A stretch of 64,000 bases of DNA from Streptomyces sp. R44 (GTDB lineage: Bacteria > Actinomycetota > Actinomycetes > Streptomycetales > Streptomycetaceae), in contig NZ_CP163444.1 of assembly GCF_041053105.1 (NCBI RefSeq), positions 2,170,001-2,234,000 on the forward strand. Direction: 5' to 3'. This document shows positions 55,598 through 57,993 of the stretch, piece by piece. How positions within the stretch are numbered: position 1 is the stretch's first letter; every line of letters starts with the position of its first letter. Below the pieces are notes generated by a model. That model did not search any database, had not been told where the DNA came from, and saw only the letters and a list, made by a program, of their open reading frames with translations. A program made the translations under genes and the position numbers.

Positions 55598-55655
55598 GCT
55601 CCCCACCCTACTGGCGGGGACCGACACTCAGGGCGGGCGCGCTCGTTGGCCGTGC

Positions 55656-56408
55656 ATGGCTCAGGAGACTTCAGGACGGCTGCCGGACCGGGTGTGCGTG
55701 ATCACGGGCGCGGCGAGCGGAATCGGCCGGGCGACGGCGGAACGCTTCGTACGGGAGGGCGCGCGGGTGGTGGCCACGGACATCGACGCGGACCGCCTCG
55801 CGGGGGTGGCCGGAGTGACCCCGGTGGTCGGGGACGTCTCCCGGGAGGAGGACGCCCGGAGGATGATCGACACGGCGGTGGAACGCTTCGGACGGCTGGA
55901 CGTGCTGGTGGCGAACGCCGGTGTGATCCCGCTGCTCTCCGTCACGGAGGCCGAGGCGGCGGACTTCGACCGGGTGATGGCCGTCGACGGCCGGGGCATG
56001 TTCCTGACCTGCAAGTACGCGATCGAGGCCATGCTCGTCACGGGTGGCGGGGCCATCGTGTGCACCTCGTCGATCTCGGGCGTGGCCGGGCAGGCGCGGC
56101 AGGCGGTGTACGGCCCGGCGAAGTTCGTCGCGACCGGCCTGACGAAGCACCTGGCGGTGGAGTGGGCCGAGCACGGGATCCGGGTCAACGCGGTGGCCCC
56201 CGGCACCATCGAGACCGAACGCGTGGCCGCCGCGCGCGTGGAGCCGGGCGGCCCCGAGTACCTCGCGGAGATCGTCGGGGCGCACCCGATGGGCCGCTTC
56301 GGAACGCCGGAGGAGGTGGCGGCGGCGATCCTGTTCCTGGCGTCGGAGGAGGCGTCCTTCATCACGGGCGCGATCCTGCCGGTGGACGGGGGGTACTTGG
56401 CCCGCTGA
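55656..56408 (+). CDS. short-chain dehydrogenase/reductase
   Basis: This 250-residue classical SDR has TGAASGIG cofactor binding, NAGVIPL, catalytic Ser in CTSSISG and YGPAK, where the usual YxxxK Tyr and Lys are kept. The acidic VATDIDAD after the second strand favours NAD over NADP. It ends GAILPVDGGYLAR. No ribosome-binding site is seen. It is divergent from uvrC, and the large palindromic element follows its stop. Confidence 0.83.
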   Translation: MAQETSGRLPDRVCVITGAASGIGRATAERFVREGARVVATDIDADRLAGVAGVTPVVGDVSREEDARRMIDTAVERFGRLDVLVANAGVIPLLSVTEAEAADFDRVMAVDGRGMFLTCKYAIEAMLVTGGGAIVCTSSISGVAGQARQAVYGPAKFVATGLTKHLAVEWAEHGIRVNAVAPGTIETERVAAARVEPGGPEYLAEIVGAHPMGRFGTPEEVAAAILFLASEEASFITGAILPVDGGYLAR

Positions 56409-56437
56409 GGGGCGCGGGGGGGCCGCGCCCGCTGCCC

Positions 56438-56644
56438 GTGTGGGCAATCGTCCCGCTGGGGCGGGACGGGTGGGCACACGGGACGGCGCCTTCTCGCGGC
56501 GCCTCCGCGTTCCGCGCCTGGACCCGCACCGGATGCGCGGCGCGCACGTGGTGCGGGTCCAGGCTCGGGAGCCTCTGGCGCCGGCAAGGGCGCCGTTCCG
56601 TTGTGCCCACCCGTTCCGCCCCGGCGGAACGCATGCCCACAACG
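56438..56644. repeat. about 210-bp imperfect palindrome with an internal hairpin in each arm
   Basis: The left arm (56438-56530) and right arm (56550-56644) are about 80% complementary around a 19-bp centre. The inner 14 bp (56517-56530 with 56550-56563) pair perfectly. Each arm also holds its own perfect 8-bp hairpin: CGTCCCGC-TGGG-GCGGGACG (56449-56468) and CGTTCCGC-CCCG-GCGGAACG (56612-56631). The two hairpins differ by paired changes that keep base pairing. The element lies between converging genes and could act as a bidirectional terminator. It could also be a dispersed palindromic repeat or MITE-like remnant. No terminal target duplication was evident. Confidence 0.8.
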
Positions 56645-56653
56645 GGGGGGCCG

Positions 56654-57400
56654 TCAGGTGGCGCGGCGGCGCAGGCGCCTCGTCGCCAGGGCCAGGGCCA
56701 CGAGCCCGCCCGCCCCCGCCGCCGCGGAGCCCGCCGCGACACCAGCCCCCTCGTCCGGCCTCGCCGCCGCGTCGTAGCCCCCCGCCGCCCCCTTCCTCGC
56801 ATACGCGGACCCCGGCAGTTTGTCGCCGTACGCCCGGGCGACCCGCTCCCGGTAGGCCGCGAGGCTCGTCCCGTCGCGTCCGACGGCCCGTACCGCGTCC
56901 TCGTCCAGCGGCAGCACCTTCGCCCCCTTCTGGACGTACCAGGCGTCGATCTGCGGCTCCCGGAAGACGAGGCCGCCGCGGCCCATCTCCGCGTACCGGA
57001 TCTCGTCGTCGCCGGTGGCGATGTTCACCACCTGCCAGCCGCCGGACTGCTCGACCGTCCACAGCGAGGCCTTCTGCCCGTCCGAGGCCACGGCCCTGCT
57101 GGCGCGGAACTCGACGCGGGCGACCGGTGCCCCGGGCTTCCCGGCGACGAAGTCCGGGGAGAGGAGCCGCACCGGGACGGACGCGCCGTCGACGCGCGGC
57201 GCGGCCGCGGCGGGGGCGAGGGCCCCGTCGCGGGCGAAGAACCGGGACAGGGTGTCGAGGGTCCCCGGCGCGGAGGCCGCCTGTTCGGGGGTGGGCGCGG
57301 GCGGCGGGCCCCCGGCGGCGGCCGAGGGAAGCGTCCCGAGGGCGACGAGCGCGGCGGCGAGGAGGCCGATGGTCGTGGCGCGTGCGTTCATGGTCGTCAC
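56654..57400 (-). CDS. exported, C-terminally membrane-anchored protein of unknown function
   Basis: This 248-residue protein has an N-terminal signal sequence (TTIGLLAAALVALGTLPSAAAG), an extracellular domain (about 35-205) and a C-terminal hydrophobic helix ending in a positive tail (GAGGLVALALATRRLRRRAT), the topology of a wall-facing membrane anchor without an LPXTG motif. The start is placed at GTG 57400, overlapping the peptidase stop (GTGA); an ATG at 57391 is possible. I do not recognise the domain. Coupling to the secreted cysteine peptidase suggests they work together. Confidence 0.7.
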   Translation of the reverse strand: MTTMNARATTIGLLAAALVALGTLPSAAAGGPPPAPTPEQAASAPGTLDTLSRFFARDGALAPAAAAPRVDGASVPVRLLSPDFVAGKPGAPVARVEFRASRAVASDGQKASLWTVEQSGGWQVVNIATGDDEIRYAEMGRGGLVFREPQIDAWYVQKGAKVLPLDEDAVRAVGRDGTSLAAYRERVARAYGDKLPGSAYARKGAAGGYDAAARPDEGAGVAAGSAAAGAGGLVALALATRRLRRRAT

Positions 57401-57993
57401 GCCCCGATCCGGTAGAGCGAGTGGGTCCAGGAGAAGGAGTTGTTGTTGACGTACCAGGCGTGCGAGGCCCAGTTGTAGCGGTCGCTGGAGGGCCAGGGGT
57501 CGCCCCAGTAGACCCAGCTGTTCGCGTCGTCGTAGCCGTAGATCACGTGCATGTGGCCGCCGCCGCTCGACCACTGGATGCGGGTCTCGACGGGCCGGTC
57601 GGCGTTGATCTCGGTCTGGACGGTCGAGTACCGCAGCCAGCCGTCGACGTACGAGCCGGGGCTGATGCCAGCCCAGCTCAGTCCGGTCTGGACGTTGCCG
57701 AGCGTGGCCTGCCAGTTGGGGCAGTCGTAGCCCTGCTGGCGGTTGAAGGCGGCGTTGCAGAACTGGTTCTGGCTGTAGTTCCGGCCGTACCAGGTGGCGA
57801 TGGTGTTGCCGCTCGCCGCCCAGCACCAGTTGGTCTTCTGCTGGGCCTGCATGGTGATGTTCAGCCGCTTGGTGGCGAGGGCGGAGACCCCCTCCTCCGA
57901 GGGCGCGGCGGACGCGGCGGAGGCCGTGGTCGTGGGGACGAGGAAGAGGGCGGCCGCGGCGAGTGCCGCGAGTTCGGTCAGTCTTCTGCGCAT
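57397..57993 (-). CDS. secreted papain-like (C39-type) cysteine peptidase
   Basis: This 198-residue exported protein has a signal peptide (RRRLTELAALAAAALFLVPTTTASA) and a papain-like fold. The catalytic Cys is in QKTNWCWAASGNTIA, the His in SGGGHMHVIYGYD and the Asp in YWGDPW. Such proteins are annotated as papain-like cysteine protease AvrRpt2-like or C39 family. Extra cysteines (FCNAAF, YDCPNW) could form a disulfide outside the cell. It is coupled to the anchored protein downstream. Confidence 0.82.
   Translation of the reverse strand: MRRRLTELAALAAAALFLVPTTTASAASAAPSEEGVSALATKRLNITMQAQQKTNWCWAASGNTIATWYGRNYSQNQFCNAAFNRQQGYDCPNWQATLGNVQTGLSWAGISPGSYVDGWLRYSTVQTEINADRPVETRIQWSSGGGHMHVIYGYDDANSWVYWGDPWPSSDRYNWASHAWYVNNNSFSWTHSLYRIGA

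What the first reader, a model, noticed from the sequence alone, without database searches (positions are those of the whole stretch)
56438..56644. Large imperfect palindrome with covarying local hairpins in both arms
Between a converging SDR gene and an anchored-protein gene lies an inverted repeat of about 93 bp per arm, roughly 80% complementary, with a perfect 14-bp core. Each arm also folds on itself (CGTCCCGC/GCGGGACG on the left, CGTTCCGC/GCGGAACG on the right). The arms differ at these stems by paired C-to-T and G-to-A changes that keep both local stems intact. That is the mark of selection on local structure, not just on the long hairpin. The element could switch between one long cruciform and two small hairpins. 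Role options are a bidirectional terminator, a dispersed palindromic repeat, or a degenerate mobile element.
Basis: partly seen in the sequence, partly recalled or inferred. Interest (0 to 1): 0.75.

Follow-up and report, generated by a model that had tools for sequence, protein, structure and literature searches.

The report
Dispersed hairpin repeats without known mover
The odd palindrome is one of at least 66 closely related DNA hairpin pairs scattered mostly behind genes on a Streptomyces chromosome; it looks like a known class of miniature mobile DNA, but the enzyme that normally moves that class was not found in this genome.

Summary
The palindrome is real and far beyond chance. It is one of at least 66 copies in its own 8.89-Mb Streptomyces chromosome. 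Each copy is an inverted pair of ~46-nt hairpins, one C-type and one T-type (53 of 53 copies in which both arms could be scored; 13 could not). Inside this genome the arms do not covary, but the single hairpin unit, found in 70 of 295 Streptomyces genomes, covaries strongly. Copies sit 3' of genes and shun divergent gaps (3 of 66). Neighbouring species carry or lack the element at the same sites. Where a site is shared, the copies are no more alike than random copies, and 2 of 12 are inverted. The architecture is that of REPINs, but their RAYT/Y1 transposase was not detected here. Best reading: a REPIN-like non-autonomous mobile hairpin pair with an unidentified mover. A terminator role is possible but unproven; the fold switch is untested.

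The parts
56436..56645 (.). whole element: inverted pair of hairpin units with spacer, one copy of the dispersed family
56436..56481 (+). C-type unit: outer stem CCGTGTG/CACACGG, conserved GTGGGCA repeats, inner stem CGTCCCGC/GCGGGACG (stem-loop 56449-56468)
56485..56503 (.). spacer hairpin GGCGCC-TTCTCGC-GGCGCC, loop variable between copies
56517..56563 (.). central palindrome with perfect 14-bp arms and a loop that varies strongly between copies
56577..56594 (.). spacer hairpin GGCGCC-GGCAAG-GGCGCC
56598..56645 (-). T-type unit, inverted relative to the C-type unit: outer stem CCGTTGTG/CACAACGG, inner stem CGTTCCGC/GCGGAACG (stem-loop 56612-56631)
55698..56408 (+). flanking SDR-family gene, stop codon 27 bp from the element

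Best explanation
It is one copy of a REPIN-like, non-autonomous mobile element: two short hairpin units in inverted orientation that spread as a pair. Shown: dispersal, the pair architecture, constraint on the unit hairpin across the genus, difference in occupancy between species at orthologous sites, and absence of locus-specific sequence inheritance at shared sites. Inferred: a trans-acting enzyme recognises the two small hairpins, probably in single-stranded DNA, and copies or moves the pair; copies last mainly 3' of genes because those landing in promoters or genes are selected out; repeated insertion at preferred spots or ectopic gene conversion keeps copies alike. The mover is not a RAYT/Y1 transposase recognisable in this genome.
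For: At least 66 copies in the genome in both orientations. Inverted C+T pair in 53 of 53 copies with both arms scorable. Near-invariant arms with variable hairpin loops. Genus-wide covariation of the unit: outer pair 1 T-A 57, C-G 34, G-C 5 of 99; inner pair 4 T-A 63, C-G 23, G-C 9 of 99. Element found at 5 of 15 (one only half) and 3 of 14 orthologous sites in two related species, with 9 short-gap sites lacking it. At shared sites the partner copy ranks 10th to 47th of 66 in similarity, and 2 of 12 are inverted. No target duplication seen by eye, as with ssDNA transposition (recalled knowledge). Single units occur as often with as against the neighbouring gene, 22 and 25, which favours a DNA-level element over a directional RNA.
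Against: No movement has been observed. No mover identified: Y1_Tnp absent from G000 and RAYT model below cut-off in all 14 genomes searched. Loss by palindrome deletion can mimic an empty site: one 'empty' site holds a collapsed relic, and two more may hold remains. The polarity (gain or loss) was not established with an outgroup. Shared-site results fit conversion without transposition as well.
Confidence: 0.6

Rival explanations
1. A host-used 3' element: a bidirectional transcript end or a block to 3' exonucleases, kept and copied behind many genes because it is useful.
For: 62 of 66 copies lie in convergent or tandem gaps; very stable hairpin readable from both strands; near-invariant stems. 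Bidirectional 3' ends exist in Streptomyces (PMC8269248, passages).
Against: No T-tract by the scan. At copy 2383909 the element lies, by eye, between two other terminator-like hairpins. In two related species 10 of 15 and 11 of 14 sites lack it. No strand bias of single units. No RNA data were available.
Confidence: 0.17
2. Protein-binding or chromosome-organising site, like some roles proposed for BIMEs in enterobacteria (recalled), concentrated in the core of the linear chromosome.
For: All 73 arm matches lie at 1.23-7.67 Mb of 8.89 Mb; the motif GTGGGCA is conserved on both sides of the inner hairpin (partly fixed by the search pattern).
Against: Patchy: exact units in 70 of 295 genomes of the genus, copy number from 1 to 125 among them; occupancy differs between close species. 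No binding protein known.
Confidence: 0.12
3. An ordinary MITE moved by a DDE transposase.
For: Inverted arms, small size, many copies, presence or absence between species.
Against: No target duplication seen by eye at the cleanest empty sites (no formal test). Each arm is itself a covarying hairpin. In 59 loci from other genomes scanned with 1.5-kb flanks, units that co-occur are at most 271 bp apart (start to start), so no larger element with the same ends appeared.
Confidence: 0.08

Closest known systems
REPINs (REP doublets forming hairpins), PMC3116915 (abstract and passages seen)
   Same: Two short palindromes in inverted orientation with a spacer, forming one long hairpin or a less stable local fold; many copies in extragenic DNA; non-autonomous.
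   Different: No RAYT found in the carrier; the two ends are always of different type in the 53 scorable copies; pair spans ~210 bp against 71 bp between 16-mers of GI REPINs.
REP elements with RAYT transposases, PMC2817692 (passages seen)
   Same: Short imperfect palindrome with GTGG 5' of it (GTAG or GTGG in the REPs of that paper's table); high copy number; singles and pairs.
   Different: GTGG is separated from the inner palindrome by five bases; no cognate RAYT; the find for Streptomyces and Actinobacteria in that paper gave 0 hits.
MITEs
   Same: Small, inverted ends, no coding capacity.
   Different: No target duplication seen; arms are hairpins themselves.
Intrinsic or bidirectional terminators of Streptomyces (PMC8269248, passages)
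   Same: Stable hairpin close to stop codons.
   Different: No T-tract; dispersed as one conserved sequence; occupancy differs between close species.

Membership tests
REPIN | two REP-like palindromes as an inverted pair | tested here: met
   53 of 66 copies aligned in full; 53 of 53 with both arms scorable have the inverted C+T pair
REPIN | many copies in extragenic DNA of one genome | tested here: met
   66 copies, 1 of them scored inside a called gene by my own gene caller
REPIN | GTAG/GTGG-type tetranucleotide at the foot of the palindrome | tested here: inconclusive
   GTGG is present in the unit but five bases away from the inner stem
REPIN | RAYT (Y1 HUH) transposase in the genome | tested here: not met
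   PF01797 none in G000; NF047646 over cut-off in 0 of 14 genomes, weak below-cut-off matches in G267 and G284; of the control genomes one is over the cut-off
REPIN | observed excision or insertion intermediates | not testable with these tools
   no reads available
DDE-type MITE | target-site duplication | tested here: inconclusive
   none seen by eye in 12 occupied/unoccupied alignments; no formal test
DDE-type MITE | related autonomous element with the same ends | tested here: inconclusive
   none in 59 loci; Pfam scan of 132 neighbour ORFs showed no transposase in the 25 of 188 families listed, single-member families not shown
intrinsic terminator | hairpin followed by T-tract | tested here: not met
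   0 found in window 55600-57500
intrinsic terminator | RNA 3' ends at the hairpin | not testable with these tools
   no RNA data
Rfam RNA family | match over the family's gathering score | tested here: not met
   only matches below gathering score (3; 5, in 18 loci of other genomes)

The most novel reading that the evidence does not exclude
A genus-specific REPIN-like hairpin element that spreads without any RAYT or Y1 transposase, by an undescribed hairpin-recognising enzyme or by recombination alone, with rapid whole-copy replacement at shared sites and regularly unlike arms that may tune the balance between the long and the local fold.
Probability: 0.4. Interest if true: 0.78.

Novelty: new variant of a known kind. 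Interest (0 to 1): 0.62.

Why it matters
REPINs are proposed to depend on RAYT transposases (PMC3116915 and PMC2817692, passages). A high-copy family with signs of rapid turnover in genomes where none was detected would mean an unrecognised mover, a recently lost one, or a RAYT-free way of spreading. Streptomyces genomes are widely used and engineered, and ~210-bp palindromes behind dozens of genes bear on transcript ends, assembly and recombination. The covariance model of the unit gives a handle for finding a partner gene.

Tried and rejected
Terminator by T-tract: none found. Rfam identity: only sub-threshold matches. Covariation inside the own genome: none, neither on the long hairpin (0 of 61 pairs with both sides changed) nor on the local hairpins (1 of 54 pairs, not above shuffles); both calls used 53 of the 66 copies (200-235 bp; 12 longer and 1 shorter left out). 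Autonomous parent: none in 59 loci scanned; Pfam scan of 132 neighbouring ORFs inconclusive for single genes because 25 of 188 families were shown. RAYT: not detected in G000. In-place inversion by crossing over within the arms as the cause of the inverted shared-site copies: judged unlikely because the inverted S. tanashiensis copy at 2383909 has two intact, unmixed arms.

Literature: searches listed nothing that describes this repeat. Six arm 14-15-mers were searched as words; one occurs in one held paper, on colon cancer, which I did not open. Only open-licence PMC papers were searched, and no supplements were read. PMC11109978 analysed S. avermitilis among 50 genomes and counts 250 'mobile/repeat sequence candidates', so this motif might sit in its supplement. 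Papers, what was seen: PMC3116915 abstract and passages; PMC2817692, PMC4681348, PMC12306157, PMC8269248, PMC11109978 passages; PMC6006769 searched for three words with no hit; all others search listing only. That IS200/IS605-type transposition leaves no target duplication, BIME roles in enterobacteria and MITE traits are recalled.

Limits: the copy number is a lower bound, because only places listed (some lists cut) were fetched. Gene calls are from my own codon-usage script, looked over only in the window. The gap control (36 other gaps over 80 bp in the same loci) leaves out the element-bearing gaps and so is biased against convergent ones; I therefore rest on divergent gaps, 13 of 36 there and 10 of 24 in the window. 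In one search the columns fixed by the search pattern are invariant by selection, and two of the five measures are less clear (pairs with change on both sides 6 against 5.4 shuffled, 177 of 500 as high; pair types 19 against 15.6, 15 of 500). The PF01797/unit cross-table was tallied by hand. One search printed 45 of the 80 loci. One of 30 loci (L327, a weaker second match of the same query piece) was left out.

Full report
OBSERVATION. The palindrome at 56436-56645 lies between an SDR gene (stop at 56408) and a convergent gene (stop codon at 56654). Its arms match at 86 of 108 aligned columns. The fold is far more stable than in shuffles (z -9.98 as DNA; -12.87 as RNA). The stated local stems and the 14-bp core are there.

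FAMILY IN THE OWN GENOME. A search of the genome (G000, one contig of 8,892,027 bases) with the element scored 40 of 240 candidates; it returned 40 places, the window's own and 39 others at 87-94% identity, one of them matching only 193 of 241 bases. A profile built from 30 copies and run on 72 fetched loci plus the window gives 66 copies of at least 140 bp, 65 of them over 200 bp, besides shorter pieces. Exact patterns give 57 C-type units and 64 T-type units. The arms are almost invariant, while the hairpin loops vary. In 53 of 53 copies in which both arms could be scored, one arm is C-type and the other T-type; of the 13 others, 12 are the long copies printed, which carry an inserted palindrome in an arm. 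So the 'covarying' difference between the arms is a fixed family trait. Within the genome there is no covariation on the 53 copies aligned: 0 of 61 long-hairpin pairs and 1 of 54 local pairs, not above shuffles.

FAMILY IN THE GENUS. A degenerate pattern for the single unit hits 70 of 295 Streptomyces genomes, with 0 for the reversed control pattern. This is a lower bound: the covariance model later found weaker matches in genomes without an exact pattern match, such as G067 and G133. In the other genomes sampled the unit is mostly single; inverted pairs occur in relatives of G000 and a few others. On 99 distinct units the free stem positions change together: outer pair 1 T-A 57, C-G 34, G-C 5; outer pair 2 G-C 90, C-G 5, T-A 1; outer pair 3 C-G 38, G-C 20, T-A 10; inner pair 4 T-A 63, C-G 23, G-C 9. 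The covariation score is 0.192, against a shuffled mean of 0.067 (0 of 500 as high) and 0.010-0.078 with slid partners. The count of pairs with both sides changed (6) is not above shuffles (5.4), because few positions were free; cells with both sides changed are (154 against 57.4, 0 of 500). Beyond outer pair 3, 42-46 of 99 units pair. The tool warns that relatedness alone can beat shuffles; the slid controls keep relatedness and stay far lower. I take this as the real evidence that the small hairpin is under constraint. A covariance model found the unit in 11 of 246 genomes of the class, all in the one genus (1 of 103 genera), with filters that lose weak matches. No Rfam family matches.

PLACEMENT. 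Of 66 copies, 27 lie between convergent genes, 35 between tandem genes, 3 between divergent genes and 1 was scored inside a called gene. Divergent gaps make up 3 of 65 against 13 of 36 other gaps over 80 bp in the same loci (P = 7e-5). Units of other species behave alike: 28 convergent, 47 tandem, 2 divergent, 10 inside, 4 at a locus edge (91 of the 99 units; 8 units in seven loci of the G000 type left out). In tandem gaps 22 units read with the genes and 25 against. In G000, elements come close to stop codons and mostly keep 75 bp or more from start codons. This fits both removal of insertions from promoters and a function at 3' ends. All 73 arm matches fall within 1.23-7.67 Mb.

TURNOVER. 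At the window's own site the element is present, in the same orientation, in G162, G270, G004 (partly deleted) and G249 (T-arm largely lost), absent from G224 and G015, and replaced by another gene in G268. Strain CB02261 has partial matches behind the same gene, but the SDR gene is not in the locus. S. narbonensis, S. zaomyceticus and Root431 have gaps of 1.3-1.9 kb without a match. Sixteen further G000 sites were sought in S. tanashiensis and S. nymphaeiformis: 5 of 15 found sites (one only half an element) and 3 of 14 carry an element. Of the 21 site comparisons without one, 9 leave a gap of at most 48 bp, 5 leave 76-136 bp, 4 hold 0.7-1.2 kb of other DNA and 3 lack one flank. One of the nine, 3709396 in S. 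tanashiensis, holds a collapsed hybrid hairpin, as expected when the inside of a palindrome is deleted; 1651104 and 5643961 may also hold remains. No target duplication was seen by eye. Where a site is shared, the copies are not specially alike: in 12 comparisons the G000 copy of the same site ranks 10th to 47th of 66, mean 27, where 33.5 is expected for unrelated copies. Two of the 12 are inverted, at least one with both arms intact. So occupancy is partly shared, but sequence is not inherited locus by locus; copies seem to be replaced, by re-insertion at preferred spots or by ectopic conversion. Gain and loss were not polarised with an outgroup.

MOVER. The architecture is that of REPINs. 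REPINs go with RAYT transposases, so I looked for these. Y1_Tnp (PF01797) occurs in 98 of 295 genomes but not in G000; 30 of 70 unit-bearing and 68 of 225 other genomes have it (P = 0.06), and 3 of 13 genomes with ten or more units (tallied by hand; test). The RAYT model NF047646 reaches its cut-off in none of 14 genomes, including G000, S. tanashiensis and S. nymphaeiformis; two (G267, G284) have weak matches below it. The element therefore works like a REPIN but fails one defining membership test. A RAYT lost recently, or too diverged for these models, is not excluded.

VERDICT. The best account is a REPIN-like non-autonomous mobile hairpin pair. How it moves, whether it ends transcripts and whether it switches folds are open.

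Noticed in passing
12 long G000 copies (243-265 bp), e.g. G000:C1:1031534-1031798 and 2044081-2044340; also L310, L303 (S. tanashiensis) and L322, L309 (S. nymphaeiformis): A second palindromic repeat (mostly of the type GGGGGTCCCCCC...GGGGGAGGG, ~40 bp) is inserted in an arm hairpin, in most copies at the same place in the stem, in C-arms and in T-arms: palindromes nested in palindromes.
   Followed up: partly
G000:C1:6184148-6184266 and similar places beside other copies: Tandem 39-bp repeats of part of the T-type unit lie next to the T-arm of some copies.
   Followed up: no
G000:C1, whole chromosome: All 73 arm matches lie between 1.23 and 7.67 Mb of 8.89 Mb, none in the outer parts; not corrected for gene content.
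   Followed up: partly
central loops of the 53 aligned copies (alignment A1, about columns 106-130): Loop halves look shuffled between copies: left-hand variants such as GGAT and their complements ATCC on the right occur in different copies, as if conversion acted in both orientations (by eye).
   Followed up: no
window 57397-57993: Beside the unclassified convergent gene lies a papain-like cysteine protease gene (PF12385, PF13529).
   Followed up: no
L098 (G268), same intergenic position as the window element: In place of the element there is another gene of about 1 kb, probably for a secreted protein judging by its start (by eye).
   Followed up: no
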